From Acidobacteriota bacterium (GTDB taxonomy: Bacteria > Acidobacteriota > Vicinamibacteria > Marinacidobacterales > Marinacidobacteraceae): a stretch of 64,000 bases of DNA. Below, piece after piece: positions 2,028-38,700 of this stretch (positions within the stretch are counted from its first letter, which is position 1; the number at the start of each line of letters is the position of its first letter). A program made the translations under genes and the position numbers. Location of the stretch: assembly GCA_022820545.1 (NCBI GenBank), contig JAJEFG010000082.1:1-64000 (forward strand), read 5' to 3'. The notes under the pieces are model-generated. The model was not told where the DNA came from. It did not search any database and saw nothing but the letters and a program-made list of their open reading frames with translations.

Positions 2028-2214
2028 GTCTCGACCGACCGGAGGACGGCGCGCTCATTTCTGTCAAGCTGGCGCCGCGTCCGCATGTTCGCAGTGACTG
2101 GTTCCAGGCGCACGGCGTGAACGCGAGCTGCGCTCACGCTCGTTCCATGTCGTCGCGGCACCCGATTGCGGGCGGCACAGCGATTGATTATTGTTGTATA
2201 TCCTTGATCGAACC

Positions 2215-3423: not shown

Positions 3424-6400
3424 ATCGTCGCCTCGCTGTCGTGGGGCAGTGTTTCCTCGAGAGCCTGCCGCAGATCCTCCGGAGTCGCCGGCCGCTGCTC
3501 GGACGGACCCTTGCCGACGCGGCCCCCGCCGAACCAGAGGCCGAGATAGATCCCGTGTCCGCTGGCGGCCGGGAGCGTCGTGTACTTCGGAATGAGCTGT
3601 TCGGAGACGGCCGTCCAGAGGCCTGGATGGCCTTCGCGCTTGATTTCGATGGGAACGGCAATTCCGTCGCAGGACACGCGGAGGTCACTCCGAGTGTTGC
3701 CGGCGTGACGGGCCTCGGGCAGCACGACGATCCGGTCGCCCAGTCTCGCGCGCAGCGCCCCGAGCACCGCGTCGCGGCACGAGTTCTCCGGCTTGGGACT
3801 CACGGGACGTCCGTACGAGTCCTCATTCCAGAAGTCGCGCCACGTGTTCTCGTCCCCGCCGCGAAGGTCGGCTGCGAGATCGTCCAGATGACCGGCAACG
3901 AGCGCGACGAGGTCGGCCGCGTTGCTCGGAAGTCCCCCGCGCAGCGTCTCCGCAACGCGCTCCACCGAAGCAGGCGCATAGCCGGCGTCGCGGCTCGCGG
4001 TGCGCTGGCGGTCGCGCGCGAACTCCAGTGTCCGCCTCCACTCGGCCAGAGTCGGATCCGCCAGCAGCGACTCCAGCGCCTCCCCCGCAGCGGCGCCCGG
4101 CTGCGCGCCGAGAATCCCGATCCACCCGCGTGTCATTGCCGCCGCCCGCGCCGGAAGGTCCACGCGGCCTTCCTTCCACTCCTCGTCCGGCGCGAACATC
4201 GGCCCGAATCGCTGGACGAGCGGCTTCAGGGTCGCCGGATCCGTGACTCTCACCATGGACGGGGCGGCCCAATCGGGGCACAGGAAGACCGCCACCTCGC
4301 GCGTGGCCTCGTCCTGGGCCCGTGTGGAGTCGCCAAACTGCGCCCGGTAGTCCTCCGGGGCGGCGACCAGACCCGCCGCCAGCCAGTGCGCCCGCTGGGC
4401 GGTGGTGACGCTCTTCGAAGCGACTTTGCGGGCAATGATCTTCCGGAGTTCCGTCCGGTCGGCGTGCCGCAACGCCGCCCAGAGCAGGCAGTCGAGGACC
4501 CGAAGCTGGGTCCCCAGGCCGCGCAACGGAAAGCCCCGCAAGAGCGGCAGCGACGCTTGGCGGGCTACCTCCGCGTAGTCCGGGTCCATGGCCAGACGAT
4601 CCAGATGCACGAGGCTGGCGCTCCCGGCGGCGATGTTGGGTTTCGCCCAGCGGACGAAGACCTCGGCAACCAGCTCCGGGCGCGACCGCAACAGTTCTCC
4701 AAGCCACGGAGGCGTCTCCAGCCGACCCGTCGGGACCGTGTAGTAGAGGGTCAGTGCGATCCGTCGCTGCGTGTCGTCGAGGGTTGCGAGTCGCCCCGGA
4801 TCCTCTCGCTCGATCACTTCGAGTCCGGCGAGGAACGGCAACGAGAGGTAGTGGAACCGGGATTCGGCGCGCAGGCGGAGGATCTCCGCCATCTCGGGGA
4901 CGTCCTCGCGGAAGGGGACGCCGCTCAGTCCGCGAAGCGCCGCGTCCACGAGGGTCGCATCGGAGAACCAGTCGCCAGCGCCCGGCCCGCCGACGTACTC
5001 GCGCAGCGTCTCCAGATACGCCCGCGCCAGGCGGTGCAGCACCGCAGGTGACGCCCGGTTTCCCCGCAGCGCCTCCGTTTCCGATCTCACCTGATGCTGC
5101 CACTCATCGACCCGCTCCCTCGGTTCCGCCGGGTGTTCCCGCCGGTCGCGCCTGATCCCCAGGTATCCGGGCGGCAGCGGGGTCTGCAGCAAGTCCGGAA
5201 GTCCTTCTTCCAGACGCCCGCGCCAGCGCGTCCGTTCGGTCAGTTCTTCCAGCGTGATTCCCTCCACCGCGGAACGCCGGACGGCCTGCCGGAGCAACTC
5301 TTCCGCCAATCGGGGACGGGCGTCCGCCAGCTCCACGGCCCGGTCCAGACAGAACCTTCCGAAGCCTTCCGGCAACCGGGACCCGTACAGGGTCTCGGCG
5401 ACCCGGTACGTCGGAATCGGGAGATCGTCCGCCTCCGGACACCGGGTGAAGCCCTCCAGCCAGAGCGCCTTCTGGAGATCGGGACGCCGCTCGAGGAACG
5501 TGCGGATCGCGCGCTCCGCTTCCTCGGCGCTGGGGTCCCCGGATGCCGGCGCCACACCGATGCGGAGCCAGTCGTAGAGCCGGGCCGGCGGCGTCCGGTC
5601 GCCGACGGATGCCAGCGTCCGGGCCACCAGACGAACGGGAAGATCGTTGAGGAACGCCGCATTGAGTGCCGGTCGCAGTCCGGGAAGCCTGGCCCCGAGG
5701 GCCTCCAGCAGATCGGGCAGTCGCTCCTCCGGAGTCTGCTCCAGGAAGTCGAAGCGCCAGAATTTGTAGTGCCTGCCGAAGAGTTCGTCCGGCTGGTCGA
5801 GCAGGTAGTTCCAAATCTCCCCGGGTGGAATCTCCTCGGGATACATCCGGGCAAGGAGGGTTCCGAGAAGCTCCCGATCGGGATCGCGGAGCGCGCCGCG
5901 GCGGATGTCGAGCAGGAGCCGGTGTACGCCGTCCCGCCGCGCCTCCGCCGCCACACAGTTGTGGAAGAAGGCGTCCAGCGCTCGGCGGCGGACGACGGAC
6001 CACCGGGTCTCGTCGCGCACGATCCCGAGGAGGAGGTCGGAGAACTCCGGCATCGGCTCGCCGAGCGCCAGCGCCGGGAGCACGAAACCGGTGACAACCT
6101 GGTCGGCGTCCTCACGGCCCGTTGCTTCAAGGACGTGCCGGAGGGTCGGAGCCAGATCCGGGACGGCAAGGGACCGCAGCGTGTCCTCCGGCAGCCGTCC
6201 GGCGTCCAGTTTCGGATCCTGAGCGTGGATCCGGTTCAGGAGTCGCGCTTTGTCGCTGGGTGTGAAGTCGTGGAGGTCCCCGTAAGCCACCACACCGAGC
6301 GGATCCCGTTCGATCAGGCGCGCGCGGGCTGGCGGGCAGTGGGCCGCGAGCCACGCGGCAAGGCCGCGGAGGGGCGTCGGCGGGGCGCCGTCCGGCGCCG

Positions 6401-7394
6401 TCATCAGGGCGAACACGCGGCCAGCCGGCAAGCCGCTCCTGATCCGACCGGCGAGATGCCGTGCTCCCAGGAACTCGGCAGTCTGGCGATGATGGGGTGC
6501 GAACCGCCGGACGCCTGGGGGGTCGGCCTCGGTGAACAGCCTGGTGCCGAGCGCTGCCCGCGCCAGGCGCCGATCGGACGGACGGAAGTCGTCCAGCGGC
6601 GGGTAGCCGTCATCCGACGATGAGGCATTGAGCGAACACCCGGCCGCCCCGGCGAGCAGCAGCTTCGCGCAGAGTTCGGCCGCGGCGTCGACGATCGCAG
6701 CAGGACTTGGCTGGTCTTTCGCCGCGTCGCGGTGCTCGGCGTTGCGCTCGCCGGCCATGTGGAGGCATGCGGCCTCAAAAGCCTCCCGGCGGCTTGCGGG
6801 CCAGTCGCGAGCGGCGGCGAAAGCCCCGATGAGGATTTCGATGCCCTGCGGATTCCGGAGCCACCCGAACAGTCCCTTGTCCCGGGCCGATTTCAGGAAC
6901 CGCCGGGCCTTGGCGCCTCCCAGGTTCGCTTCCAACAGGTGCTCGATGTCCGGATCGCGGAGCGGATCGAGTCGAAGCGCGGTGACGGTTTCGTCCGGGG
7001 ACACCGTCCGCAGGCGCTCCCGATCGCTCGCGAACCAGTCGGCAGCGCGGCACGAGAGCCGGAAGCGCGGCCTGCCGAGCGCATCGAGTTGTCGCCGCAC
7101 ATCGTCAAACACCGCTCGCGGATCGCCCTGCCCCGCCCGCACCTCGTCGAGTCCGTCAAGAAACAGCGTCTTCCCGGACCACGCGTCGGCCCGGGCTTCG
7201 GCGAACGTGAGGAAGTCCCGGACCGGAAGGAACAGCGCGTCGGCCCCGAGAGCCTCCGCCTCGCGGCGGAACTCGGTCGTCTTGCCCGCCCCCGGATCGC
7301 CGAGCAGCACGAAGGCCGCGGCGTCGCGGAAGGCCGCAAGCGGCTGGGACCCGCCGTCGCCGGCTTCGGTGACGGTGCGGGATACGAGGATCAT
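3141..7394 (-). CDS. NACHT/STAND-like NTPase with C-terminal PD-(D/E)XK nuclease motif, cassette copy 1
   Basis: A 1417-residue protein. Walker A GDPGAGKT is at 32-39 and a textbook NACHT Walker B, LFLDGLDEV, at 77-85, followed by RLSCRAADW. An end-of-NTPase block HRQTAEFLGARHLA lies near 315. About 900 helical, repeat-like residues follow, and then a nuclease-type motif: RSDLRVS with Asp ~1237 and PIEIKREGH with Glu-x-Lys ~1250-1252. The architecture resembles antiviral STAND proteins, in which a repeat sensor controls an NTPase and nuclease effector, but with the nuclease at the C-terminus. The ATG overlaps the stop of the upstream DUF4143 gene by 4 bp, so the two are translationally coupled. 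The last ~85 residues are read antisense from the opposing DUF4143 gene; the native stop has been lost. Defence function is inference; domain calls are from motifs. Confidence 0.85.
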   Translation of the reverse strand: MILVSRTVTEAGDGGSQPLAAFRDAAAFVLLGDPGAGKTTEFRREAEALGADALFLPVRDFLTFAEARADAWSGKTLFLDGLDEVRAGQGDPRAVFDDVRRQLDALGRPRFRLSCRAADWFASDRERLRTVSPDETVTALRLDPLRDPDIEHLLEANLGGAKARRFLKSARDKGLFGWLRNPQGIEILIGAFAAARDWPASRREAFEAACLHMAGERNAEHRDAAKDQPSPAAIVDAAAELCAKLLLAGAAGCSLNASSSDDGYPPLDDFRPSDRRLARAALGTRLFTEADPPGVRRFAPHHRQTAEFLGARHLAGRIRSGLPAGRVFALMTAPDGAPPTPLRGLAAWLAAHCPPARARLIERDPLGVVAYGDLHDFTPSDKARLLNRIHAQDPKLDAGRLPEDTLRSLAVPDLAPTLRHVLEATGREDADQVVTGFVLPALALGEPMPEFSDLLLGIVRDETRWSVVRRRALDAFFHNCVAAEARRDGVHRLLLDIRRGALRDPDRELLGTLLARMYPEEIPPGEIWNYLLDQPDELFGRHYKFWRFDFLEQTPEERLPDLLEALGARLPGLRPALNAAFLNDLPVRLVARTLASVGDRTPPARLYDWLRIGVAPASGDPSAEEAERAIRTFLERRPDLQKALWLEGFTRCPEADDLPIPTYRVAETLYGSRLPEGFGRFCLDRAVELADARPRLAEELLRQAVRRSAVEGITLEELTERTRWRGRLEEGLPDLLQTPLPPGYLGIRRDRREHPAEPRERVDEWQHQVRSETEALRGNRASPAVLHRLARAYLETLREYVGGPGAGDWFSDATLVDAALRGLSGVPFREDVPEMAEILRLRAESRFHYLSLPFLAGLEVIEREDPGRLATLDDTQRRIALTLYYTVPTGRLETPPWLGELLRSRPELVAEVFVRWAKPNIAAGSASLVHLDRLAMDPDYAEVARQASLPLLRGFPLRGLGTQLRVLDCLLWAALRHADRTELRKIIARKVASKSVTTAQRAHWLAAGLVAAPEDYRAQFGDSTRAQDEATREVAVFLCPDWAAPSMVRVTDPATLKPLVQRFGPMFAPDEEWKEGRVDLPARAAAMTRGWIGILGAQPGAAAGEALESLLADPTLAEWRRTLEFARDRQRTASRDAGYAPASVERVAETLRGGLPSNAADLVALVAGHLDDLAADLRGGDENTWRDFWNEDSYGRPVSPKPENSCRDAVLGALRARLGDRIVVLPEARHAGNTRSDLRVSCDGIAVPIEIKREGHPGLWTAVSEQLIPKYTTLPAASGHGIYLGLWFGGGRVGKGPSEQRPATPEDLRQALEETLPHDSEATIQVRVLDVTPPTVRPDPGSDKPRTFPRGTAVIPSVSGYSSSPGYTTQRCSMPRSSATTCMDLVVFGASVHLNSKPYRFPPRNSRRSSSAPRWVR

Positions 7395-8644
7395 TCGTCC
7401 GGCGCCACCCAGTACCCGGCAGGCTCGGCAAGGAAATCCGCCAGGGACATGCCTCCCGGCCCCACGAGCACGGTGCGGGCGTGCTCGTAGCGGCGCCGGA
7501 ACGCCGCCAGCCCGCGGCCGCTCGAACGGTCGCGTCCGGTCTTGACCTCGACCGCCGCCAGCTTCGGCCCGCGTTCGATCACGAAGTCCACTTCATGCGC
7601 GTCGTCCCGCCAGTAGTGGACGCGCAGGCCGATCCCACCGGTGTTGATCAGGTGCGCGCCGACGGCGGTCTCGACGACCCGGCCCCAGAACGTGCGGTCC
7701 GCCGTGGCTTCTTCGAAGGTGTAGCCAGAAGCCGCCGTCATCAACGAGGTGTCGAGGACGTTCAGCTTGGGACTCGCCGCCCGGTCGGACATCGGCCCGG
7801 CGTAGCGCGCGAGTCCGGCGACCAGCCCGACGCGCCCCAGCAGGTCGAGGTACCGGGCGAGCGTGGTCGTGTTGCCCGCGTCCCGGAGCTGGCCGAGCAT
7901 CTTGTTGTAGGCGACCATCTGCCCCGACATCTGGCAGGCGAGCCGGAAGAGGCGCGTCAACAACGCCGGCCGGTCCACCCGGGTCAGCGCCAGCACGTCG
8001 CGCTCGACGCTCGCGTCAGCGATCGAGCGGCGCACGTAGTCGCGCCACTCCGGAGGGGTTCCGGCGTGCGGCGCCGCGCCGGGGTAGCCGCCGTAGAAGA
8101 CGTAGCGGTCGATGTCGAAACCGAAGGCGGCGGCGATCTCCGGGAACGACCACTGCGCCACCGGCATCGTCTCGAACCGCCCGGCCAGGCTCTCGTTCAG
8201 GCCCTGCTGCATCGTCATCGGACTCGATCCGGCGATGACGACCCGCAGGGGACGGTCGGCGAACCGGTCCGCGTCCCAGAGTCCCTTGACCACCTCCGAC
8301 CAGCGCGGGACCTTCTGGATCTCGTCGAGCGCCAGCACGAAGCCCCGGCCGGCCGCGGCTTTCTCCCGCGCGCGCTCCCAGCGCCCGACGAGCCAGCGTT
8401 CGTCCCGCATCGCGGCCGGGAACGGATCCGTCCGCGGCGCGTCCCGCCCCGGGCGGCGGCCGGGCGAAGGGTCCGGCTCGTCCACGGCGATGTAGTGAAA
8501 CGGCATCCCGCAACGGACCAGCGCCTGCCGGATGATGACGGTCTTGCCCGTCTGCCGGGGCCCGAACACCGCCACGATCCGGCGGGGCGTCTCGCGGAGG
8601 CGGTCGGCCAGGGCGGCGACCTGGCTGCGCTCGAACCGGGGCAT
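7391..8644 (-). CDS. DUF4143-family ATPase, cassette copy 1
   Basis: A 417-residue ATPase: Walker A FGPRQTGKT at 27-35, Walker B FVLALDEIQ at 102-110, sensor-like VVIAGSSPMTM near 135-145, a winged-helix-like middle, and DUF4143 at the C-terminus. The nuclease-like residues are intact: HEVDFVIE (Glu351, Asp353) and LAAVEVKTG (Glu366-x-Lys368). It is the first gene of the two-gene cassette; its stop overlaps the start of the STAND-nuclease gene. The ATG at 8644 has no Shine-Dalgarno sequence. A promoter-like TTGAGT-N16-GCTAAT places the transcript start at the ATG, so translation is probably leaderless. It may act as a second ATPase/nuclease subunit or as a partner regulating the STAND protein; no function is established. 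Confidence 0.88.
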   Translation of the reverse strand: MPRFERSQVAALADRLRETPRRIVAVFGPRQTGKTVIIRQALVRCGMPFHYIAVDEPDPSPGRRPGRDAPRTDPFPAAMRDERWLVGRWERAREKAAAGRGFVLALDEIQKVPRWSEVVKGLWDADRFADRPLRVVIAGSSPMTMQQGLNESLAGRFETMPVAQWSFPEIAAAFGFDIDRYVFYGGYPGAAPHAGTPPEWRDYVRRSIADASVERDVLALTRVDRPALLTRLFRLACQMSGQMVAYNKMLGQLRDAGNTTTLARYLDLLGRVGLVAGLARYAGPMSDRAASPKLNVLDTSLMTAASGYTFEEATADRTFWGRVVETAVGAHLINTGGIGLRVHYWRDDAHEVDFVIERGPKLAAVEVKTGRDRSSGRGLAAFRRRYEHARTVLVGPGGMSLADFLAEPAGYWVAPDE

Positions 8645-8690
8645 TGCAGGAAATTAGCGTAAATGTTGGAGTTCACTCAATATCGTAATT
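8645..8690 (-). promoter_or_regulatory. Promoter and operator-like palindrome of cassette copy 1
   Basis: This AT-rich block is nearly identical to 33132-33175 in front of cassette copy 2. On the minus strand it has TTGAGT, 16 nt, then GCTAAT, ending about 8 nt before the ATG. An imperfect 21-bp palindrome lies at 8663-8683 with outer arms ATnTTG/CAAnAT and an inner GAGT-GA-ACTC. Conservation of non-coding DNA between copies whose coding parts have diverged suggests a functional promoter and operator. The protein that binds it is unknown. Confidence 0.6.
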
Positions 8691-8830
8691 TCCCTGCTCC
8701 GCCGCAGCTTCATCACCGGATGCGGAAGCTGCGGCCTCGGGACCAGATCCCGTCAGACCTGCCTACCTCGGAGCGCTCGTCACCGTTTGGGACGGGCAAA
8801 CTCGCGAATGCCCGATGCGTCGATTCGCCA

Positions 8831-27834: not shown

Positions 27835-30800
27835 TTACGCGCGAGCGTCGGCGGAGAACGAATGCCGTTGGCCTGGCTCGCCGACGGGCCGGGTGACATC
27901 AACAACACGCACGTCGATCTTCGACCCGCTGGCGGCTGGCAGCGTCTCTTCAAGGGCCTGCTTCAGCGTTTGTGGCGTCTGTACCAACTGGCCGGACGGC
28001 CCCTTGGGAATCCGTTGCCCGCCGAACCAGAGGACGAGGTAGATCCCGTGTCCGTCGGCGGCGGGGAGCGTCGTGTACTTCGCGACGAGTTGGTCGGAAA
28101 CGGCGGTCCAGAGGCCGCGATGGCCCTCGCGCTTGATTTCGATGGGCACTGTGAAGCCGCTGTACGACACCCGAAGGTCGCTGCGGGTGTTGTTCGCGTG
28201 CTGCGCTTCGGGCGCCACGGTGATCCGGTCGTCCAGCCTGGTGCGCAGCTCGCGCAGTACGAGATCGCGGCACGAGTTCTCCGACCTGGGGCTCGTGGGG
28301 CGGCCGTAGCCATCCACGTTCCAGAAACCGCGCCAGATGTTCTCGTCCCCACGGCACACCTCAGCGGCTAAGTCGTCGAGATGGTCGGTGACGAGCGCCA
28401 GAAGATCAGTGGCCTTCGTCGGGACCCCCCCGCGCAACGCTTCCGCGACGCGCTCTACGGAGGCAGGCGCGTACCCGGCGTCGCGGCTCTCGGTGCGCTG
28501 CCGATCGCGCGCCAGTTCCACTGTTCTCCTCCAATCCGCCAAGGCCGGATCCGCGAGCAGCGAATCGAGCGACTGTCCCGCAGCGGCGCCCGGTTGCGTG
28601 CCGAGGGCCTGGATGAACCCGCGCGTGCGCGCAGCGGCCCTTTCCGGAAGGCCCACCCAGCCCTCCTTCCACTCTTCATCCGGGGCAAACATCGGTCCGA
28701 ATCGCGTGATCAGCAGACTGAGGGTTGCGGCGTCGGTATCCGCGTCCGGGAACGACGTGCCCCAATCAGGAAACAGGAATACCGCCGCTTCCCGCGTGGC
28801 CTCGTCCCGGCCGCGGGTGAACTCGTCGAACCGGGACCGGTAATCATCCGGCGCCGCAGCCAGACCGGCCGCGAGCCAGTGCGCCCGCTGTGCGGCGGTC
28901 ACGCTCTTCGATCCGACTTTCCTGGCGATGATCCTGCGAAGTTGTGTCCGGCCGGCGTGTCCAAGCGCTGCCCAGAGCAGGCAGTCGAGGACCCGGAGTT
29001 GCGGTCCCCGGCCACGCACCGGGAATCCTGTCAAAAGCGGCAGTGCGCTCCGGTGCGCGACTTCCGCGTGATCCGCGTCGGTGACCAGACGATCCAGGTG
29101 CACCAGGCTGTCGCTGCCCGCGACGATCTCGGGCTTGGCCCAGCGGACCAGGACTTCGGCGACCAGGTCCGGGCGCGACCGCACGAGCTTCCGATACCAC
29201 GGCGGCAACTCCAAGCGACCGGTCGGGACGGTGAAGTAGAGAGCCAAGGCAGTCCGCCGTTGGATGTCATCGAGCGCCGCGAACTCTGCCGGATTCTCCC
29301 GCTCCATCACTTCGAGTCCGGCGAGGAACGGCAACGCGAGGTAGTGAGACCGCGATTCGGCGCGCAGCCGAAGAACTTCCGCCACGTCGGGGAGGTCCTC
29401 CCGATGCGGGACGCCGCGCAGCCCGCGGAGCACCGCCTCCGCGAGGGCCGCATCGGAGAACCAGACCCGGCGACCCCGAACAACGAAGTACTGGTTCAGA
29501 GTCCCAAGATATGCGCCCGCCAGGGCGTGCAGCAGCTCGGGCGACGCCCGATTCTCGTGGAGCGCCTCCGCCTCTGCACGCACCTGATCCTCCCACTGCG
29601 CCTTCTGCTTGCTCCGCTCCGCTGCGGAGTCCTTTTCCCGCCGCTTCCGGTCCAGAAACCGAGTCGCCAGCGGGGTCTGCAGCAAGTCCGGGAGCCGCAC
29701 TGCCAGATGCCCGGACCAACGGGTCCGCTCGGTGAGTTCCTCGAACGTGATTCCCTCTTCGGCCGTGCGCTGGATGGCCTGTCCGAGCAGCCATTCGGCC
29801 AGTCCGGGGCGAGCGTCCGCAAAACCCGCCGCCTGGTCCAGACAGAACCTCCCGAAGTCGTCCGGCAGCGGTGCCGCGTACAGCGTCTCGACGGCCTCGT
29901 AGGCGCAGACCGGGAAGTCCTCCGCCTCCGGACACCGCGTGAGTCCCTCCAGCAAGAGCGCCTTTTGGAGATCGGGACGCTGCTCAAGGAATGCGCGGAT
30001 CGCGCGCACCGATTCGGCGGCGCCCGGACCCCCGGACCACGACGCCGCACCCATGCGGAGCCAGTCGTAGAGCCGGGGCGGAAGGACCTGGTCGCCCACG
30101 GATTCCAGCGTCCGGGCGACCAGGCGGAGAGGAAGATCGTTGAGGAACTGCGCGTCGAGTGCCGGTCGCAGTCCCGGCAGCCTGACGCCGAGGCCTTCCA
30201 ACAGGTCGGGGAGACGCTGCGCCGGAGTCTGCTCCAGAAGGTCGAACCACCAGAATCGGTAGTACCTGCCGACAAGTTCGTCCGGCTGTTCGAGCAGGTA
30301 GTTCCAAAGTTCGTCAGGCGAAATCTCCTCGGGGTACATCCGCGCCAGCAGGGTCCCAAGGAGTTCCCGGTCAGCGTCACGGACGGCGCCTCGGTGGATG
30401 TCTCGCAGGAGTCGGCGCGCGTCCTCCCGCCGCCCTGCGTCATCGGAGCAGTTGTGGAAGAAGGCGTCCAGAGCCCGCCGGTTGGCGACGGACCACCGCG
30501 TCTCGTCGCGGGAGATCTCGAGAAGCGGGTCGGCGAATTCCGGCATCGGTTCGCCGAGTGCCAGCGCCCGGAGCACAAAACCGGTGACAACCTGGTCGGC
30601 GTCCTCACGCCCCGGTGCTTCAAGGACATGTCGGAGCGCCGCCGCTAATTCGGGGACCGCGAGGGGCCGCAGTGCGTCTTCGGGCAGCCGTCCGGCATCC
30701 AGTTTCGGATCCTGAGCGTGAATCCGGTCCAGAAGTCGCGCCTTCTCGCCGGGTGAGAAATCGTGGAGGTCGCCGTAAGCCGCCATACCGACCGGGTCCC

Positions 30801-31890
30801 GTTCGACCAGGCGCGCCCGCGCCGGCCGGCAGTGGGCCGCAAGCCATGCGGCAAGACCGCGGAGGGGCGTTGGCGGGGCGCCGTCCCGCGCCGTCATGAG
30901 GGCGAACACGCGGCCGATGGGCAGGCCGCTCTCGATCCTCCCGGCGAGGTGCCGCGCTCCCAGGAACTCGGCGATCTGGCGGTGATGGGGTGCGAACCGC
31001 CGGATGCCGGCGGGGGCGGCCTCGGTGAACAGCTTGGTGTCGAGCGCGGCCCGCGCCAGGCTCTGATCGGTGGGACGGAAGTCGTCCAGCGGCGGGTAGT
31101 CGTCATCCGACGACGAGGCGTCGAGCGAACATCCGGCCGCGCCGGAGAGCAGCAGCGTCGCGCAGAACTCGGCGGCGGCGTCCAGAACATCGGAAGGGTT
31201 TGGCTGGTCCTGCGCAGCGTCCCGGTGCTCGGCGTTGCTCTCGCCAGCCATACGGCGGCATGCGGTCTCGAAAGCCTCCCGGCGGCTTGCGGGCCAGTTG
31301 CGGCCGGCGGCGAACGCCCCGATGAGGATTTCAATGCCCTGCGGGTTCCGCAGCCACCCGGACAGACCCTTCTCCCGGGCGGACTTCAGGAAACGCCGGG
31401 CCTCGGCGCCGCCCAGGTTCGCTTCCAACAGGTTCTCGATGTCGGGATCGCGGAGCGGATCGAGCCGAAGGACCGTGACGCTTTCGTCCGGGGAGACCAC
31501 CCGCAGGCGCTCCCGATCGCTCGCAAGCCAGTCCGCGGCGCGGCACGAGAGCCGGAATCGCGGCCGTCCGAGCGCATCGAGCTGCCGCCGAATCTCGTCG
31601 AGCGGCATCCGCGGATCGCCGCTCCCCGCTCGGACTTCGTCGAGCCCGTCGAGGAAGAGCGTCTTCCCGGACCAGTCGGGCGCGCGGGTTTCGGCGAACG
31701 CGAGGAAGTCCCGAACCGGAAGGAAGAGCGCGTCGGCCCCGAGAGCGGCTCGCTCGCGCTCGAACTCGCTGGTTTTTCCCGCACCCGGATCGCCGAGTAG
31801 CACGAACGCCGGCGCGTCGCGGAAGGCGGCAAGCGGCCGTGGGCGGTCGCTGCCGGCCACGGTGACGGTGCGGGGTACGAGGCCCTTCAT
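27835..31890 (-). CDS. NACHT/STAND-like NTPase with C-terminal PD-(D/E)XK nuclease motif, cassette copy 2
   Basis: A 1351-residue paralogue of the protein at 3141-7394, alike along its full length and perhaps 75-80 percent identical by eye. Walker A GDPGAGKT and Walker B LFLDGLDEV are conserved, as are HRQIAEFLGARHLA, the ~900-residue helical middle and the nuclease motif RSDLRVS ... PIEIKREGH. This copy keeps its own stop, ending VVDVTRPVGEP and a short Ala-rich tail, and so shows what copy 1 has lost. The start ATG at 31890 overlaps the DUF4143 stop by 4 bp; an open frame extending further upstream to 32535 lies in the wrong frame of the DUF4143 gene and is rejected. The level of divergence means that the duplication is old or that the copies were acquired separately. 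Confidence 0.87.
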   Translation of the reverse strand: MKGLVPRTVTVAGSDRPRPLAAFRDAPAFVLLGDPGAGKTSEFERERAALGADALFLPVRDFLAFAETRAPDWSGKTLFLDGLDEVRAGSGDPRMPLDEIRRQLDALGRPRFRLSCRAADWLASDRERLRVVSPDESVTVLRLDPLRDPDIENLLEANLGGAEARRFLKSAREKGLSGWLRNPQGIEILIGAFAAGRNWPASRREAFETACRRMAGESNAEHRDAAQDQPNPSDVLDAAAEFCATLLLSGAAGCSLDASSSDDDYPPLDDFRPTDQSLARAALDTKLFTEAAPAGIRRFAPHHRQIAEFLGARHLAGRIESGLPIGRVFALMTARDGAPPTPLRGLAAWLAAHCRPARARLVERDPVGMAAYGDLHDFSPGEKARLLDRIHAQDPKLDAGRLPEDALRPLAVPELAAALRHVLEAPGREDADQVVTGFVLRALALGEPMPEFADPLLEISRDETRWSVANRRALDAFFHNCSDDAGRREDARRLLRDIHRGAVRDADRELLGTLLARMYPEEISPDELWNYLLEQPDELVGRYYRFWWFDLLEQTPAQRLPDLLEGLGVRLPGLRPALDAQFLNDLPLRLVARTLESVGDQVLPPRLYDWLRMGAASWSGGPGAAESVRAIRAFLEQRPDLQKALLLEGLTRCPEAEDFPVCAYEAVETLYAAPLPDDFGRFCLDQAAGFADARPGLAEWLLGQAIQRTAEEGITFEELTERTRWSGHLAVRLPDLLQTPLATRFLDRKRREKDSAAERSKQKAQWEDQVRAEAEALHENRASPELLHALAGAYLGTLNQYFVVRGRRVWFSDAALAEAVLRGLRGVPHREDLPDVAEVLRLRAESRSHYLALPFLAGLEVMERENPAEFAALDDIQRRTALALYFTVPTGRLELPPWYRKLVRSRPDLVAEVLVRWAKPEIVAGSDSLVHLDRLVTDADHAEVAHRSALPLLTGFPVRGRGPQLRVLDCLLWAALGHAGRTQLRRIIARKVGSKSVTAAQRAHWLAAGLAAAPDDYRSRFDEFTRGRDEATREAAVFLFPDWGTSFPDADTDAATLSLLITRFGPMFAPDEEWKEGWVGLPERAAARTRGFIQALGTQPGAAAGQSLDSLLADPALADWRRTVELARDRQRTESRDAGYAPASVERVAEALRGGVPTKATDLLALVTDHLDDLAAEVCRGDENIWRGFWNVDGYGRPTSPRSENSCRDLVLRELRTRLDDRITVAPEAQHANNTRSDLRVSYSGFTVPIEIKREGHRGLWTAVSDQLVAKYTTLPAADGHGIYLVLWFGGQRIPKGPSGQLVQTPQTLKQALEETLPAASGSKIDVRVVDVTRPVGEPGQRHSFSADARA

Positions 31891-33131
31891 TCCGGCGCGA
31901 CCCAGTGCCCGGCGGGGTGCGAAAGAAAATCCGCCAGGGAAAGGCCCCCCGGCCCCACGAGGACCGTGCGGGCGCGCTCGTAGCGCTGCCGGAACGCGGC
32001 CAGGGCGCGGCCGCTCGAACGGTCGCGGCCAGTCTTGACCGCGGCCAGTTTCGGGCCACGCTCGATGACGAAGTCCACCTCGTGCGCGTCGTCCCGCCAG
32101 TAGTGCACGCGCAGGCCGATCTCTCCGGTGTTGACGAGGTGCGCCCCGACCGCGGTCTCGACGACCCGGCCCCAGAACGTGCGGTCCGCCTGGGCCTCTT
32201 TGAAGGTGTAGCCGGAAGCCGCCGTCATCAACGAGGTGTCGAGGACGTTCAGCTTGGGACTCGCGGCCCGGTCGGACAGCGGCCCCGCGTAGCGCGCGAG
32301 CCCGGCGACCAGCCCGACGCGCGCCAGCAGGTCGAGATACCGCGCCAGCGTCGTGGTGTTGCCGGCGTCCCGGAGCTGGCCGAGCATCTTGTTGTAGGCG
32401 ACGATCTGCCCGGACATCCGGCAGGCAAGCCAGAAGAGGCGCGTCAGCAGCGCGGGCCGGTCCACGCGGGTCATCGCCAGCACGTCGCGTTCGACGCTGG
32501 CGTCGGCGATGGCGCGGCGCACGTAATCGCGCCACTCCGGCGGGGTTCCGATGTGCCGCGCCGCGCCGGGGTAGCCCCCGTAGAAGACGTAGCGGCCGGC
32601 ATCGAAACCGAAGGCCGCGGCGACCTCAGGGAACGACCACTGCGCCACCGGGATCGTCTCGAAGCGTCCGGCCAAGCTCTCGTTCAGGCCTTGCTGCATC
32701 GTCATGGGGGATGACCCGGAGATGACGACCCGCAGGGGACGGTCGGCGAAGCGGTCCGCGTCCCAGAGTCCCTTGACCACTTCCGACCAGCGGGGGACCT
32801 TCTGGATCTCGTCGAGGGCCAGCACGAAGCCGCGACCCGCGGCGGCCTCCTCCCGTGCGCTCTCCCAGCGCTGGACGACCCAGCGTTCGTCCCGCATGGC
32901 GGCCGGGAAGGGATCGGTGCGGGGCGCTGCGAGCGACCTACCGCCCGCCGGCGAACGGTCGGGCTCGTCCACCGCGATGTAGCGAAACGGCATCCCGCAG
33001 CGGGCGAGCGCCTGCCGGATGATGGTGGTCTTGCCCGTCTGTCGAGGGCCGAACACGGCGACGATCCGGCGCGGCGTCTCGCGGAGGCGGTCGGTCAGGC
33101 TGGCAACCTGGCTGCGCTCGAAACGGGGCAT
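31887..33131 (-). CDS. DUF4143-family ATPase, cassette copy 2 (nuclease-like Glu-x-Lys lost)
   Basis: A 414-residue paralogue of the protein at 7391-8644. Walker A FGPRQTGKT and Walker B FVLALDEIQ are intact, as are the middle region and HEVDFVIERGPKLAAV. The next residues are KTGRD, where copy 1 has EVKTGRD. GTC GAG GTC AAG has become GTC AAG, a 6-bp in-frame loss that looks like slippage between the two GTC codons. It removes the Glu of the Glu-x-Lys motif. ATPase function should persist, but any DUF4143 nuclease activity is probably lost. The gene has no Shine-Dalgarno sequence and shares the leaderless-type promoter of copy 1. It is divergent from the giant helicase gene, 133 bp apart. 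Confidence 0.88.
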   Translation of the reverse strand: MPRFERSQVASLTDRLRETPRRIVAVFGPRQTGKTTIIRQALARCGMPFRYIAVDEPDRSPAGGRSLAAPRTDPFPAAMRDERWVVQRWESAREEAAAGRGFVLALDEIQKVPRWSEVVKGLWDADRFADRPLRVVISGSSPMTMQQGLNESLAGRFETIPVAQWSFPEVAAAFGFDAGRYVFYGGYPGAARHIGTPPEWRDYVRRAIADASVERDVLAMTRVDRPALLTRLFWLACRMSGQIVAYNKMLGQLRDAGNTTTLARYLDLLARVGLVAGLARYAGPLSDRAASPKLNVLDTSLMTAASGYTFKEAQADRTFWGRVVETAVGAHLVNTGEIGLRVHYWRDDAHEVDFVIERGPKLAAVKTGRDRSSGRALAAFRQRYERARTVLVGPGGLSLADFLSHPAGHWVAPE

Positions 33132-33175
33132 CGCAGGAAATTAGCGTAAATGTTGTGATTCACTCAATATCGTAA
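33132..33175 (-). promoter_or_regulatory. Promoter and operator-like palindrome of cassette copy 2
   Basis: On the minus strand TTGAGT, 16 nt, GCTAAT lie just before the ATG at 33131, and the block matches 8645-8690 at nearly every position. The 21-bp palindrome at 33150-33170 keeps the outer arms ATnTTG/CAAnAT; its centre here is GTGA-A-TCAC. TTTACG also occurs twice, 26 bp apart. The DUF4143 gene is probably leaderless, since no Shine-Dalgarno sequence lies between promoter and start. Confidence 0.6.
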
Positions 33176-33264
33176 ATTTGAAGCTCGAAACATCGCCGGC
33201 GTCTATCACGGCGGTACGATGGAATCCATGAGGTCTCAACGTTGACCCGCGAGGAACCCGACCT

Positions 33265-36200
33265 GTGGCGCTGAATCCGGTCGTCTACACCGAGAACGTC
33301 GTCCGCAGCTTCCTCCGCTACCAGCTCACCGCGTACCCGTTCGCCGCTCCGCATCTGCATCAGCAGATGCGCGACCTCCTCTCGCTCGACGAGACCCGGC
33401 AGTCGCCCCTTCTCCAAGGTCCGTTCGTCAGCCTCTCGCAGCCCTTCCGGCAGGGCGCGGAAATGGCTGACCTCGTCCGCGAGGGGGTACTCCATCCCCA
33501 TCTTGCCGACCGGATCCCCGACGGCATCAACCGGCTCTACGCGCACCAGGAGCGGGCCATCCGCTCCGTCGTGGAGGGTCGGACGACGCTCGTCTCGACG
33601 GGCACCGGTTCCGGCAAGACCGAGTGCTTCCTCTATCCGGTCGTGAGCCGTTGCTTCGAACTCCGGGACCGGTCAGCGGCGCCCGGAATCAGCGCGGTCA
33701 TCGTCTATCCCATGAACGCGCTGGCGGAAGACCAGTTGATGCGCCTGCGCGGCCTGCTCGCCGGGACGGGTGTTCCGTTCGGGCTCTACGTCGGCAAGAC
33801 GCCCGAATATGAAGCCCAGGTGGCGGGCGTCCGGCTGCCGCCGGGAGCGTCGCGGGCGGACTACGAAGCCCGGCTGGCGCAGGCGCAGCACGAGGGGAGC
33901 GGAGAGACCGTGATTCCGCCGGAGGAAGTCTGCTCGCGCGAGGTGATGCGCACCGCGGGGCGGCAGCCGCGCATCCTGCTTACGAACATCAAACAGTTGG
34001 AGTTGTTGCTGACCCGGCAGCAGGACATCGAGTTGTTCGCGGACGCCCGGCTGGATTTCCTTGTCTTCGACGAGGCGCACACCTTCACGGGGGCGCTGGG
34101 CGCCGAAACCGCCTGCCTGATTCGGCGGCTGCGCGCATTCGGCCCTTCCGGGGCCAGCCGCACGACCTGCGTTGCGACCTCGGCCACCATCGTGGACCGC
34201 GAGGACCCGGACGCAGCGCGCCGGTTCGCGGCCCGGTTCTTCGGGGTCGAAGCGGCCGAGGTCACGACCGTCGGCGAGGAAACCGAGGCGGAGGTGTGGG
34301 CAGCGCCCCGGTCCGTTCCACCCGTCCCGCGCGGGGACACAGCGGAGATCCTGGAACGCTGCGTCCAGGCGGTGGAGGACGCGGACGAAGCGGGGGGAGC
34401 CGTCCGCGGCGTCTGGCGTTCGCTCACGAGCGGGCATCTGGCCGGCGGGAACTGGCCGGAGTCCCTGTACGACGCCCTGTCGCGGAACGAACTCGTCTTC
34501 CGGCTGGGCGAGGAGCTGGCCGCCCCGAAGGCGCTGGAGGCGCTGCCCTCCGCCCTGGAGAAACACCTCGGGCGGCCGGTGACCGAAGCGGAGATCCTGG
34601 CCTGGCTGACGCTCGGCGCGGCGGCGCGTCGCGACGGGAGGCCCCTACTCCGGCCGGTCGTCCATGGATTCGTGCGGGGCATCGGCGGAGCGGTGGTGTC
34701 CTTCCCGGACGATGCCGACGGCCCGCGGCTCTGGCTTACCGCCGAAGACGAAGCCGCCAGCGAACCCAGCGGCGCCAACGGTCGCCCCGGCCGGGCGCAT
34801 TTCCAGGTAACGACCTGCACCACCTGCGGCCAGCACTACTTCCTCGCGTTCCTGAAGGACTTCGAGTTTCTCGGCAAGACCCCGGGCGGCGGCGAGGCCG
34901 GGCCGGACGGGTCGCATTGGCCGCTTCTGGAGCCGGCCCTCGGAGGGAAACGGGTCGTCCTCTTCGACGCGCTCATCGGTGCGAGCGACGACGCGGAGGA
35001 CGATGCTCCCGCCCTGGCGCGCACGGCGGCGCTCCATTTCTGCCGGAGCTGCGGCGCGGCGCACCCGGAACCAGCCGCCCGCTGCCTTGACTGCGGCTCG
35101 CTCGCACCGGCCGTCCGGCTCCACGCGGTGCGTCAACGCAAGGACCGACCGGGGAAGCTGGTCAGTTGCCTTTCATGCGGCGCCCACGGGCGGACATGGG
35201 CCGGTGGTTACCGGGAGCCGGCGCGCCGGGTGCGCGCGGTCAACGTCGCCGACGTGCATGTGCTGACCCAGGACATGGTGCACCACGCCGAGCGGCGGCG
35301 GTTGCTCGTGTTCTGCGACAACCGGCAGGACGCCGCGTTCCAGGCCGGATGGATGAAGGACCACGCCCGCCGCTTCCGGTTGCGGGCGCTGATGGCGCAG
35401 GGCATTCAGGAGGGGGCCGCCTCGGTCGGCGACCTGGTGGGCTGGCTCGACGACCGGCTCGAGGACGACGAGGCCCTCTCCCGCGCCCTGATTCCCGAGG
35501 TCTGGCAGGTGGCTCGCCGGGAGACCGCCGGCGGGCGCCACGGCGTGGAACGGCGGAAGTACCTCCGCTTCCAGGTGCTGCGTGAGGTCGCACTGGCCTC
35601 GGGGCAGGCGCTCGGACTCGAACCGTGGGGCCGGATGAAGGTGGAGTACGAGGGACTCGACAGCGCCGCGCCCTGGATCCAGGAACACGCGCACCGGCTC
35701 GGCATCTCGGCGGACCGTTTGCGCGAGGGTGTTGCCGGGATCCTCGACTTCTTCCGCCGGCGGCGCGCGCTCTACGACGCCGAATACGGGATCTTCACGA
35801 AGTACTGGGCGGACGGCAGCCCCGAAGTGCAGCAGGGCTACCTGCCCCACTTTCGCGGTCCGGCCGCCACGAAATTGCAGCGGGAGCCGACGGAAAAGAA
35901 GGAACTCCTCATCCAGTGGCTGAGCCGCGGCGGCGACACCACGATGCGCCAGCTCGCGGCCAAATGGGGCGTGGTCTCGGAATCCATCGAAGCGTTCCTG
36001 ACCGGCCTTTTCGGCTTCCTCGTGGAACGCGAGCTGCTGGTCCCGGTCCGGCTCAAGGGATGGCGTGGGGGCCCGTTGCCCAACATCCACGGCGTGTACC
36101 AGGTGAGCGCCGACCGGCTGCGCCTCTTCCCGAACCGGGGCGTGTACCGGTGTCGAAACTGCCGCCGTACGACCCCCAGAAACCTGCCCGGCGACCGGTG

Positions 36201-38700
36201 CCCGGCGTGGCGCTGCCGCGGTTCGCTGGAATGGGTCAAGGAGGACGAGGACAACTACGACCTGCAACTGCTCGACGGCGCCTACTCCATGCTGCGCCCC
36301 GAAGAGCACACGGCCATGGTGCCGAACCACGAGCGCGAGCGGTTGGAGAACCTGTTCAGGGGCAGTTCGGACGCGGTGAACTGCCTCGTCTGCACCCCGA
36401 CGCTGGAACTCGGCATCGACATCGGGCAGCTCGATTCGGTGCTGATGCGCAACGTGCCGCCGCTGCCGGCCAACTACTGGCAAAGGGCCGGACGGGCGGG
36501 GCGGCGCCACCGGATGGCCGTGGACATCACCTACTGCCGCCCGACGTCCCACGACCGCGCCTATTTCGCGGAGCCGCCAAAGATGCTCGCGGGACGGATC
36601 GATCCGCCGGCGTTCAACCTGCGGAACGAGGTGATGATCGCGAAACACGTCCACGCGTCGGTGATCGGCGGTCTGTTCCGCTATGCGCGTGACCCGGGCC
36701 AGACCGATGAGGAGCGGGAGAGGATCGCGGCGGTGCTTGCCGAATGCCTGCCGCGGCAGGTCGTCTCGTGGCTCTTCGACGGCGGCGCACTGCGAACCGA
36801 TCCGTTCGATTTCGGGCCGCTGCGCGCGCTCGTGGCGGACCGTGCGGAGGAGTTGGCCGCGGATGTGCGGCGCGTGTTCGAGGGTGGCTGGCCGGCTGAG
36901 GACGCCGATGTAGTGGCCCCCGAAGCGCTCCGCGCCCATGTCGCGGGATTCGCTGACGAACTGGAAACCGTCGTCGTGCGACTGCGGCGTCGTCTGGAGT
37001 GGGCGATGGAGCAGATCCGCCGGCTCAACAGAGTCCGTGAGCGCCGCGGCGCGCTCGAACCGGGGGATGACACGCTGTTCCGTCGCTGCGACAGGCTGGT
37101 GAAGCGCCTCAGGGGAGAGGGCCGGCGGCGCACCCAGGCGGAGGGGCACGACGACGTGGGCACCTTCAGCGTGCTGGCCGCGGAGGGTTTCCTGCCCGGT
37201 TACGGCCTCGAGGCCGGTTCGGTGGTCGGCTCGGCGGAGATTCCGTTCTGGCGCACCGGGGCCATGGACTTCGATCTGCCCCGGCCTCCGGCGACCGCCC
37301 TCCGCGAGTACGTACCCGGCAACCTGATCTACGCGAACGGCCACCGTTTCGTGGCGCGGCGGTTCCGCCGCGAGCCGGGCGAGCAGCAGGCGGAGATGCC
37401 GTACTTCCACGTGTCACGGGAGCGTCAGGCGGTGAAGGAGGCTGTCGGCGGCGAAGCCTCCACCCTCGGGGGAAACACCCTGCGGACGATGGCCGTCTGT
37501 GATGCGGACCTCGTTCACCGGTCGCACATCTCTGACGAAGAGGAGTTCCGCTTCCAGATGGGCGTCGCGATCTACGGTCTGGAGCGCCAGCGGCACAGCG
37601 GCGGACGTGCCTTCCTGTGGGGACCGCAGCCGGTACAGATCCGGCGCGGGGTGAACCTGCGCCTCGTGAACGTGGGCGCCTCGGCAGCACTCGAACGCGG
37701 TGGGGAGCTCGGATATCCCATCTGTGCGGTGTGCGGCCAGAGCGTCTCGCCGCTCTCTTCCGAGCTTCAGCGCGAGCAGTTCGACAAGGACCACGGGGAG
37801 CGGTGCGGGCGACCGGCCAAGCCGCTCGGCTTTCACACGGACGTGGTCGCGGACGCCCTCTCGCTGCCCGACTGCGCAGACGCAACCACGGCGTACAGCG
37901 TTCTGGAGGCGCTCCGGCTCGGCGCGGCCCGTGTGCTCGACATGCACGTCGAGGACTTGCAGGTCCTGGTGGTCGGTCACGTGGAGCGCGATACGCCGGA
38001 TGCGCTGCTGTGGGACCCCATGCCCGGCGGTTCCGGATTGACGGGCCGCCTGCTGGATCGGTTCGACGAGGTCGTCGCGATAGCGCGTGAAGTGGTCGCG
38101 GACTGCCCCGCCGCCTGCGATTCATCGTGCATCGACTGCCTGCAGTCGTTCCGGAACGCGTACTACCACCGCTTCCTGCACCGCGAAACCGCCCGCAAGC
38201 GACTCGACGACTGGGGCCGGCGCCTCCGGTTCACGCACGACATCCCGCCGTTGCAACCGGCGGCGGCACCCGGCGAGAACGCCCCGCCGGTCAACGAGGC
38301 GGAGACGCGGTTACGTCACCTGCTGCTCGCCGCCGGGTTCGGCGAAGGAGTGCGGGGCGAACAGATTCGGCTCGACCGCGCGCTGGGCACCACGACCCCC
38401 GACGTGATCTACCGTGCTCCCGATGACGATCCGCACGAGGGCGTTTGCATCTACCTGGACGGCCTGAGCCGGCACCTGCACGGCAACCCGGCGACGGCCG
38501 AGAGAGACAGGGATATCCGCACCTGGCTCCGCAACCACGACTATGAGGTGATCGAGATCGCCGCCAACCAGCTCACCGACGAGGACGCCATGGTGCGCCA
38601 CTTCCGGCGGCTGGCCGCGTATCTCGGGCGGCAGGATCTGCGGGGTCGGGTGCGGAAGGATCGGTCCTGGTTTCACGCTCCTGTGCCCGTAAAGGACTGA
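33265..38700 (+). CDS. druE: Giant DEAD/DEAH helicase with DUF1998-type zinc cluster, DruE-like
   Basis: An 1811-residue superfamily 2 helicase. Motif I is STGTGSGKTE at 111-120, motif Ia YPMNALAEDQ near 148, motif II DEAH at 269-272, motif III TSAT near 310, and motifs V-VI TLELGIDIGQLDSV and YWQRAGRAGRR near 1048-1090. Zinc-type CxxC pairs occur near 518 and 592-612. The DUF1998/MZB cluster CDSSCIDCLQSFRN is near 1617, and NxxYHRFLHRETA follows. The final ~120 residues (PDVIYRAP, VCIYLDGLSRHLHG, DRDIRTWLRNHDYEVIEI) look like a DUF559/Vsr-type endonuclease fold. Size and domains fit DruE, the one gene common to all Druantia defence types. No other Druantia gene is adjacent. The start GTG at 33265 has GAGGAA 8 nt upstream. 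Confidence 0.8.
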   Translation: MALNPVVYTENVVRSFLRYQLTAYPFAAPHLHQQMRDLLSLDETRQSPLLQGPFVSLSQPFRQGAEMADLVREGVLHPHLADRIPDGINRLYAHQERAIRSVVEGRTTLVSTGTGSGKTECFLYPVVSRCFELRDRSAAPGISAVIVYPMNALAEDQLMRLRGLLAGTGVPFGLYVGKTPEYEAQVAGVRLPPGASRADYEARLAQAQHEGSGETVIPPEEVCSREVMRTAGRQPRILLTNIKQLELLLTRQQDIELFADARLDFLVFDEAHTFTGALGAETACLIRRLRAFGPSGASRTTCVATSATIVDREDPDAARRFAARFFGVEAAEVTTVGEETEAEVWAAPRSVPPVPRGDTAEILERCVQAVEDADEAGGAVRGVWRSLTSGHLAGGNWPESLYDALSRNELVFRLGEELAAPKALEALPSALEKHLGRPVTEAEILAWLTLGAAARRDGRPLLRPVVHGFVRGIGGAVVSFPDDADGPRLWLTAEDEAASEPSGANGRPGRAHFQVTTCTTCGQHYFLAFLKDFEFLGKTPGGGEAGPDGSHWPLLEPALGGKRVVLFDALIGASDDAEDDAPALARTAALHFCRSCGAAHPEPAARCLDCGSLAPAVRLHAVRQRKDRPGKLVSCLSCGAHGRTWAGGYREPARRVRAVNVADVHVLTQDMVHHAERRRLLVFCDNRQDAAFQAGWMKDHARRFRLRALMAQGIQEGAASVGDLVGWLDDRLEDDEALSRALIPEVWQVARRETAGGRHGVERRKYLRFQVLREVALASGQALGLEPWGRMKVEYEGLDSAAPWIQEHAHRLGISADRLREGVAGILDFFRRRRALYDAEYGIFTKYWADGSPEVQQGYLPHFRGPAATKLQREPTEKKELLIQWLSRGGDTTMRQLAAKWGVVSESIEAFLTGLFGFLVERELLVPVRLKGWRGGPLPNIHGVYQVSADRLRLFPNRGVYRCRNCRRTTPRNLPGDRCPAWRCRGSLEWVKEDEDNYDLQLLDGAYSMLRPEEHTAMVPNHERERLENLFRGSSDAVNCLVCTPTLELGIDIGQLDSVLMRNVPPLPANYWQRAGRAGRRHRMAVDITYCRPTSHDRAYFAEPPKMLAGRIDPPAFNLRNEVMIAKHVHASVIGGLFRYARDPGQTDEERERIAAVLAECLPRQVVSWLFDGGALRTDPFDFGPLRALVADRAEELAADVRRVFEGGWPAEDADVVAPEALRAHVAGFADELETVVVRLRRRLEWAMEQIRRLNRVRERRGALEPGDDTLFRRCDRLVKRLRGEGRRRTQAEGHDDVGTFSVLAAEGFLPGYGLEAGSVVGSAEIPFWRTGAMDFDLPRPPATALREYVPGNLIYANGHRFVARRFRREPGEQQAEMPYFHVSRERQAVKEAVGGEASTLGGNTLRTMAVCDADLVHRSHISDEEEFRFQMGVAIYGLERQRHSGGRAFLWGPQPVQIRRGVNLRLVNVGASAALERGGELGYPICAVCGQSVSPLSSELQREQFDKDHGERCGRPAKPLGFHTDVVADALSLPDCADATTAYSVLEALRLGAARVLDMHVEDLQVLVVGHVERDTPDALLWDPMPGGSGLTGRLLDRFDEVVAIAREVVADCPAACDSSCIDCLQSFRNAYYHRFLHRETARKRLDDWGRRLRFTHDIPPLQPAAAPGENAPPVNEAETRLRHLLLAAGFGEGVRGEQIRLDRALGTTTPDVIYRAPDDDPHEGVCIYLDGLSRHLHGNPATAERDRDIRTWLRNHDYEVIEIAANQLTDEDAMVRHFRRLAAYLGRQDLRGRVRKDRSWFHAPVPVKD

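What the first reader, a model, noticed from the sequence alone, without database searches (positions are those of the whole stretch)
27835..33175. Second, diverged copy of the same cassette 25 kb away in the same orientation
Gene order, 4-bp overlap, promoter and full-length protein similarity are all repeated. Roughly 20-25 percent of residues differ by eye across the whole protein, including the presumed sensor, so the copies are old or separately acquired. Keeping two could give two recognition specificities in one island.
Basis: partly seen in the sequence, partly recalled or inferred. Interest (0 to 1): 0.7.

Follow-up and report, generated by a model that had tools for sequence, protein, structure and literature searches.

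The report
Paired NACHT immune-receptor cassettes, old paralogs
An Acidobacterium carries two old, diverged copies of a two-gene antiphage module (a DUF4143 ATPase followed by an NLR-like NACHT protein with a nuclease tail), and relatives show that the module's helical recognition segment is exchanged as a block between cassettes.

Summary
Copy 2 (27835-33131, minus) repeats copy 1 (3141-8644, minus) in gene order, ATGA overlap, promoter block and full-length similarity: DUF4143 protein 90% identical, large protein 73-74%. The large protein is a NACHT protein related over its full length to antiphage EruA (NCBIfam, 892 bits, cut-off 1000). Its N-terminal model resembles NLRC4/NOD2/NLRP3; a helical array and a predicted PD-(D/E)xK nuclease follow. 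The partner is PDC-S01, an abundant unvalidated defence candidate; two relatives fuse the genes. The copies are not recent in-genome duplicates: copy 1's sister is in another species, and genome G001 has positional counterparts of both. Divergence is uneven (NTPase 83%, array 71%, nuclease 69%), but synonymous divergence rises in parallel (omega 0.18-0.38), so it does not itself show selection for new specificity. Other pairs do show block exchange of the array with nearly fixed borders (residues ~353-397 to ~1138-1146), and copy 1 carries an exchanged 536-800 block, part copy-2-like. Copy 2's DUF4143 protein alone lost the invariant Glu of its EVK motif. A palindromic operator travels with this DUF4143 clade. 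Two specificities are plausible, not shown.

The parts
31887..33131 (-). B2: DUF4143 ATPase (AAA_14 + DUF4143), PADLOC PDC-S01, 414 aa, first gene of copy 2
   Evidence: Pfam AAA_14 2.9e-21 and DUF4143 8e-25; PDC-S01 9.5e-142
27835..31890 (-). A2: EruA-like NACHT protein, 1351 aa, second gene of copy 2, ATGA overlap with B2
   Evidence: NCBIfam NF058535 8.9e-268 over 16-1333, 892 bits against cut-off 1000
30811..31890 (-). A2 residues 1-360: NACHT NTPase part (Walker A 36-39, Walker B 81-85)
   Evidence: invariant G36 G38 K39 D81 L83 D84 E85 in 22 homologs; AF2 model of 1-700 (pLDDT 85) matches NLRC4 5.5e-8, NOD2, NLRP3
28456..30810 (-). A2 residues 361-1145: all-helical array, presumed sensor; the block exchanged between cassettes in relatives
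   Evidence: AF2; block borders
27871..28455 (-). A2 residues 1146-1340: predicted PD-(D/E)xK nuclease (E1204, D1238, E1251-x-K1253, Q1267)
   Evidence: invariant residues; helix/strand order of the model; not confirmed by Pfam or Foldseek
32034..32042 (-). Site of the two-residue (VE) loss in B2: AAVEVK in copy 1, AAVK here, removing the invariant Glu of the DUF4143 PD-(D/E)xK-like motif
   Evidence: E-V-K present in all 16 other B proteins compared; DNA
33132..33179 (-). Promoter/operator block of copy 2, ends next to the ATG; likely leaderless start
7391..8644 (-). B1: DUF4143 ATPase of copy 1, 417 aa, with intact EVK
3141..7394 (-). A1: EruA-like NACHT protein of copy 1, 1417 aa; homology ends near 3378, the remainder is a read-through tail
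8645..8692 (-). Promoter/operator block of copy 1
2191..3423 (+). Convergent third DUF4143/PDC-S01 protein next to copy 1; marks positional counterparts of copy 1 in G003 and G001
33265..38700 (+). DruE-like helicase divergent to copy 2; marks the positional counterpart of copy 2 in G001 (87% identical)

Best explanation
Copy 2 is the second of two old paralogous (or anciently separately acquired) two-gene antiphage cassettes in a defence island. A is the immune receptor: a NACHT NTPase followed by a long helical array that recognises a phage product, and a C-terminal PD-(D/E)xK nuclease that destroys nucleic acid once the NACHT part is triggered. B (AAA + DUF4143, PDC-S01) is made from the same, probably leaderless, message, is translationally coupled to A, and probably regulates the operon through the palindrome at its promoter and/or acts as an N-terminal companion or effector module of A. 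The receptors diversify in large part by recombination that swaps the helical array between cassettes, so two copies in one island could give two recognition ranges and a donor for gene conversion. Shown by computation: anatomy, homology, age and order of the copies, block exchange. Inferred: phage recognition, nuclease action, role of B, difference in specificity.
For: EruA full-length match of A1 and A2. NLRC4/NOD2/NLRP3 structural matches of the N-terminal model. Walker and PD-(D/E)xK residues invariant in 22 homologs. B-A adjacency across Acidobacteriota and on one contig classed as viral; fusion into one ORF in G252 and G338. Copy 1 pairs with G003C17 (99/96 for B, 100/100 for A) and copy1+copy2 is rejected. 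Synteny: G001C66 corresponds to copy 2; G001C130 and G003C17 correspond to copy 1. Purifying selection on both copies, omega 0.18-0.38 between them. Block exchange: G338/G301 residues 397-1143 (pS 0.10-0.23 inside, about 0.60 outside), G252/G338 383-1138, G003C65/G001C148 353-1146, copy1/G003C17 536-800. Operator motif lies 14-20 bp before DUF4143 genes. Dense defence island around: Dsr1, DrmD, type IIG/DrmMI, DruE, PDC-S33.
Against: No experiment exists for this pair. A lies below NCBI's EruA cut-off. Pfam and a sequence search of the PDB do not recognise A2's nuclease or NTPase at significance, and the C-terminal model has no Foldseek match at E<=0.001. A occurs without B on Proteobacteria plasmids and in G141/G350C9, and G205 keeps A with only a B remnant, so B is not essential to A everywhere. 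Copy 1 and copy 2 do not differ by a clean sensor swap: the nuclease is as diverged as the array. On fourfold sites alone the copy1/G003C17 block was not significant (LLR 7.6, shuffle maximum 9.6).
Confidence: 0.66

Rival explanations
1. The two copies are functionally redundant relics: copy 2 is a decaying spare (its B has lost the EVK Glu) kept only because the island is inherited, with no difference in specificity.
For: B2 alone lacks the invariant Glu. B decay, or an internal cassette deletion, occurs in relatives G205, G418 and G082. Cassette G001C66, the positional counterpart of copy 2, shows frameshifts. dS gradient without raised omega.
Against: A2 is fully open over 1351 codons, keeps every invariant residue of NTPase and nuclease, and shows omega 0.16-0.39 by region in comparisons with the intact cassettes.
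Confidence: 0.2
2. B (PDC-S01) is a complete defence gene of its own, and A is a separate EruA-like gene that happens to sit behind B's promoter; the pairing is convenience, not a joint mechanism.
For: Solo B in Thermus, Collinsella, Bacteroides and at C18 of the own genome; solo A on Proteobacteria plasmids; B and A identities disagree, e.g. G003C65/G001C148 B 92%, A 51%. The operator belongs to B, not to A.
Against: Pairing with a coupled start persists in most acidobacterial A loci spanning 35-81% identity of A, and B-A fusion exists in two genomes.
Confidence: 0.25
3. Recent tandem or in-genome duplication with neutral divergence.
For: Both copies in one island, same orientation; residues about 541-660 of A group copy 1 with copy 2.
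Against: Trees, AU tests, positional counterparts in G001 and G003, and copy1/copy2 dS of 0.35-0.57 against about 0.30 for a flanking gene between species. The shared stretch fits local gene conversion.
Confidence: 0.04

Closest known systems
EruA, NACHT antiphage protein (NCBIfam NF058535)
   Same: Full-length match 16-1333 of A2 to 13-1318 of 1318 model positions, E 8.9e-268
   Different: 892 bits, below the curated equivalog cut-off of 1000; here paired or fused with a DUF4143 ATPase. The primary paper was not found in the library.
PDC-S01 defence candidate (PADLOC)
   Same: B1/B2 match PDLC04791 at 5.8e-144 and 9.5e-142; AAA + PD-(D/E)xK-superfamily domain (PMC12988326)
   Different: Described as a single-gene candidate (PMC12988326); here the first gene of an operon with a NACHT receptor, sometimes fused to it.
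bNACHT proteins (bNACHT25/32, clade 6)
   Same: NACHT module plus PD-(D/E)xK nuclease plus helical region (PMC12169576)
   Different: Canonical order is effector-NACHT-sensor from N to C (PMC12169576); here the order is NACHT-helical array-nuclease.
AVAST/Avs STAND proteins
   Same: STAND-type NTPase with effector and recognition array (own knowledge)
   Different: No Avs model hit in PADLOC; domain order differs.

Membership tests
EruA (NF058535) | Full-length alignment to the model | tested here: met
   A2 16-1333 to model 13-1318 of 1318; A1 17-1332
EruA (NF058535) | Score above the curated equivalog cut-off (1000 bits) | tested here: not met
   892 and 879 bits; 0 of 396 phylum genomes exceed it. 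Filed as an EruA homolog, not as EruA.
EruA (NF058535) | Antiphage activity | not testable with these tools
   needs phage challenge
NACHT / NLR-like STAND NTPase | Walker A and B residues | tested here: met
   G36 G38 K39, D81 L83 D84 E85 invariant in 22 homologs
NACHT / NLR-like STAND NTPase | NACHT fold | tested here: met
   Foldseek NLRC4 5.5e-8, NOD2 1.1e-6, NLRP3 1.4e-6; the Pfam NACHT model hits only 1 of 22 homologs
bNACHT canonical architecture | Order effector-NACHT-sensor | tested here: not met
   NTPase at 1-360, helical array, predicted nuclease last
PDC-S01 | AAA_14 + DUF4143 with strong PADLOC match | tested here: met
PDC-S01 | PD-(D/E)xK-like motif intact in copy 2 (present in most members compared; not a formal criterion of the PADLOC model) | tested here: not met
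   copy 2 lacks the Glu of EVK; copy 1 and 15 other B proteins keep it
PD-(D/E)xK nuclease (C-terminus of A) | E...D...ExK (Q) residues in an alpha/beta core | tested here: inconclusive
   residues invariant and topology plausible, but no Pfam or Foldseek confirmation

The most novel reading that the evidence does not exclude
PDC-S01, one of the commonest unexplained defence genes, is a working part (autoregulator plus N-terminal effector or licensing subunit) of an NLR-like receptor, and that receptor's sensor of about 780 residues is a swappable module: cassettes keep B, NACHT and nuclease and trade the helical array as a block, with paralogs in the same island serving as donors, giving bacteria a recombining receptor repertoire.
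Probability: 0.3. Interest if true: 0.78.

Novelty: new variant of a known kind. Interest (0 to 1): 0.52.

Why it matters
[quoted passage not shown] Its operonic and fused association with an EruA-type NACHT receptor gives a concrete, testable partner. The block exchange with nearly fixed borders marks the likely recognition module of this receptor family by natural experiment, so sensor exchanges can be tested along borders that evolution already uses. The two natural copies, one with and one without the EVK Glu in B, form a ready contrast.

Tried and rejected
Pfam on A: no family above cut-off for A1/A2. Sequence search of the PDB with the A profile: best 0.046, not usable. Foldseek of the C-terminal half: only weak HEAT-repeat matches, none at E<=0.001. 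Paper searches for EruA, HyoA and DUF4143 gave no defence paper. The longest-identical-run statistic was discarded because shared gap columns inflate it. The fourfold-site-only block scan for copy1/G003C17 was not significant, whereas the all-sites scan was (LLR 66.6, shuffle maximum 32.6). Recent in-genome duplication rejected. The window operator scored as a free palindrome is not significant; only the comparison with relatives identifies it.
Full report
Observation. Copy 2 consists of B2 (31887-33131, minus, 414 aa) and A2 (27835-31890, minus, 1351 aa). Copy 1 consists of B1 (7391-8644) and A1 (3141-7394), on the same strand about 24.5 kb away. In both, ATGA is shared by the B stop and the A start, and a nearly identical block of about 45 bp abuts the B start codon. 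The 31-bp core of that block occurs exactly twice in the window, against 0.00 expected. B is 90% identical and A 73-74%, with A aligned end to end with a single-residue indel before the diverged C-terminal tails.

What the proteins are. B is AAA_14 + DUF4143 and the PADLOC candidate PDC-S01. A has no significant Pfam or PADLOC hit, but over its full length it matches NCBIfam NF058535, 'NACHT domain-containing antiphage protein EruA' (892 bits, below the 1000-bit equivalog cut-off). In 22 homologs, from Acidobacteriota to Bradyrhizobium, Vibrio and Pantoea plasmids, the invariant residues include a Walker A/B set (G36, G38, K39; D81, L83, D84, E85) and a C-terminal PD-(D/E)xK-like set (E1204, D1238, E1251-x-K1253, Q1267). 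AlphaFold2 of residues 1-700 (pLDDT 85) matches NLRC4, NOD2 and NLRP3 in the PDB. Residues 640-1351 (pLDDT 81) are an all-helical array followed by a mixed alpha/beta domain. The order NACHT - array - nuclease differs from the effector - NACHT - sensor order described for bNACHT proteins (PMC12169576).

The pair as a unit. B lies directly upstream of A, usually with an overlapping or abutting start, in most acidobacterial A loci, and on IMG/VR contig L112. In G252 and G338 they form one open frame of about 1850 codons. A remnant in G082 joins the B N-terminus to the A C-terminus after an internal deletion, and G205 keeps an intact A behind a B reduced to its tail. Proteobacterial plasmids and the G141/G350C9 branch have A without B. 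B also occurs alone, for instance in Thermus, and the window's own genome has 22 DUF4143 hits of which only two are next to A.

Age and origin of the two copies. In trees of B (99/96) and A (100/100) copy 1 pairs with G003C17, and copy1+copy2 as one clade is rejected (AU p 0.025 for B, 0.0011 for A). Synteny agrees. G001C66 sits between the DruE-like helicase (87% identical) and DrmMI, as copy 2 does, whereas G001C130 and G003C17 have the convergent DUF4143 gene of copy 1. Synonymous divergence between the copies (0.35 in B, 0.57 in A) exceeds that of a flanking peptidase-like gene (44295-46250) between the species (0.30-0.33), while copy1/G003C17 (0.19 in B, 0.32 in A) is at or below it; another flanking gene, ppk2, gave 0.55-0.64, so the clock is loose. 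Two cassettes thus probably existed before these species split; an old double acquisition is not excluded.

Sensor divergence. Copy1/copy2 identity is 83% for residues 1-360, 71% for 361-1145 and 69% for 1146-1340, with a low of about 50% at 741-840. But dS rises in step (0.38, 0.47, 0.67, 0.78, 0.91 along A), and omega stays at 0.21-0.38. The gradient is therefore better read as recombination or homogenisation of the 5' half than as selection for a new specificity in this pair.

Block exchange. Copy 1 and G003C17 differ at 12% of DNA sites outside and 29% inside residues 536-800 of A (LLR 66.6, maximum of 500 shuffles 32.6). Part of that block (about 541-660) is closest to copy 2, which fits gene conversion within the island. 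Elsewhere in the phylum the pattern is cleaner. G338/G301 have near-saturated synonymous divergence in B, NTPase and nuclease (pS about 0.60) but 0.10-0.23 in the array; their block is 397-1143. G252/G338 (383-1138) and G003C65/G001C148 (353-1146) show the reverse, more alike at the ends and diverged in the array. G252/G301 are most alike in 1149-1292 at the nuclease end. Nearly the same borders in different pairs, coinciding with the domain borders of the model, indicate a module that is exchanged as a unit. The pairs overlap in members, so they are not fully independent.

B2 and its operator. B2 alone has lost two residues, turning the invariant EVK of the DUF4143 PD-(D/E)xK-like site into AVK; all 16 other B proteins compared, including a solo Thermus one, keep E-V-K. 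Upstream of the B genes lies a promoter-like block (TTGAgt, about 17 bp, then a TA-rich -10-like hexamer) ending 6-8 bp before the start codon, so the message is probably leaderless (inference). In relatives it contains a palindrome like TTGAGTAAAATTACTCAA. Searching 60 genomes for TGAGTNNNNNTACTCA gave 17 places, 15 with a palindromic core; 12 of the 14 such loci fetched have a DUF4143 gene of this clade starting 14-20 bp downstream, and the fifteenth place is the G049 cassette. The window copies carry a degenerate form. A regulator conserved with the gene, most simply B itself, is the likeliest reader; this is inference.

Verdict. The finding is a real, old pair of paralogous NACHT-nuclease cassettes with a PDC-S01 partner.

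Noticed in passing
L123-L136 (relatives), own genome C18:86523-86538: A palindrome like TGAGTAAAATTACTCA lies 14-20 bp before the start codon of DUF4143/PDC-S01 genes in 12 of 14 fetched loci, including solo genes: a conserved operator for this clade.
   Followed up: yes
window 31887-33131: B2 alone among 17 compared B proteins lacks the Glu of the EVK motif (two-residue deletion).
   Followed up: yes
L014/L086 (G252) and L018/L083 (G338): B and A are fused in one open frame of about 1850 codons in two genomes.
   Followed up: partly
L096 (G082), L016/L084 (G205), L088 (G418): Decayed cassettes: an internal deletion joining B's start to A's end, and B reduced to a C-terminal tail while A remains intact (G205).
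   Followed up: partly
window 3141-3423: A1 and the convergent DUF4143 gene both seem to run past their homologous ends, giving a tail-to-tail antisense overlap of 283 bp that is absent in G003.
   Followed up: no
window 1-419: 32-bp tandem repeat array (13 copies, 89% matches), also present next to the G003 cassette (L074 18548-19942); no spacers, so not CRISPR.
   Followed up: no
window 9784-40310: Dense defence island: PDC-S33 (RelA/SpoT-like), DrmD, DrmMI/type IIG, Dsr1, a STAND-like protein with pentapeptide-like region (25146-27404), DruE-like helicase, TIGR04141/DUF6119 protein; a HI1420-type antidote gene at 8831-9166.
   Followed up: partly
L112 (IMG/VR 3300022743_000214): A contig classed as viral encodes B (48%) and A (31%) back to back, followed by genes that look like part of a type I restriction system.
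   Followed up: no
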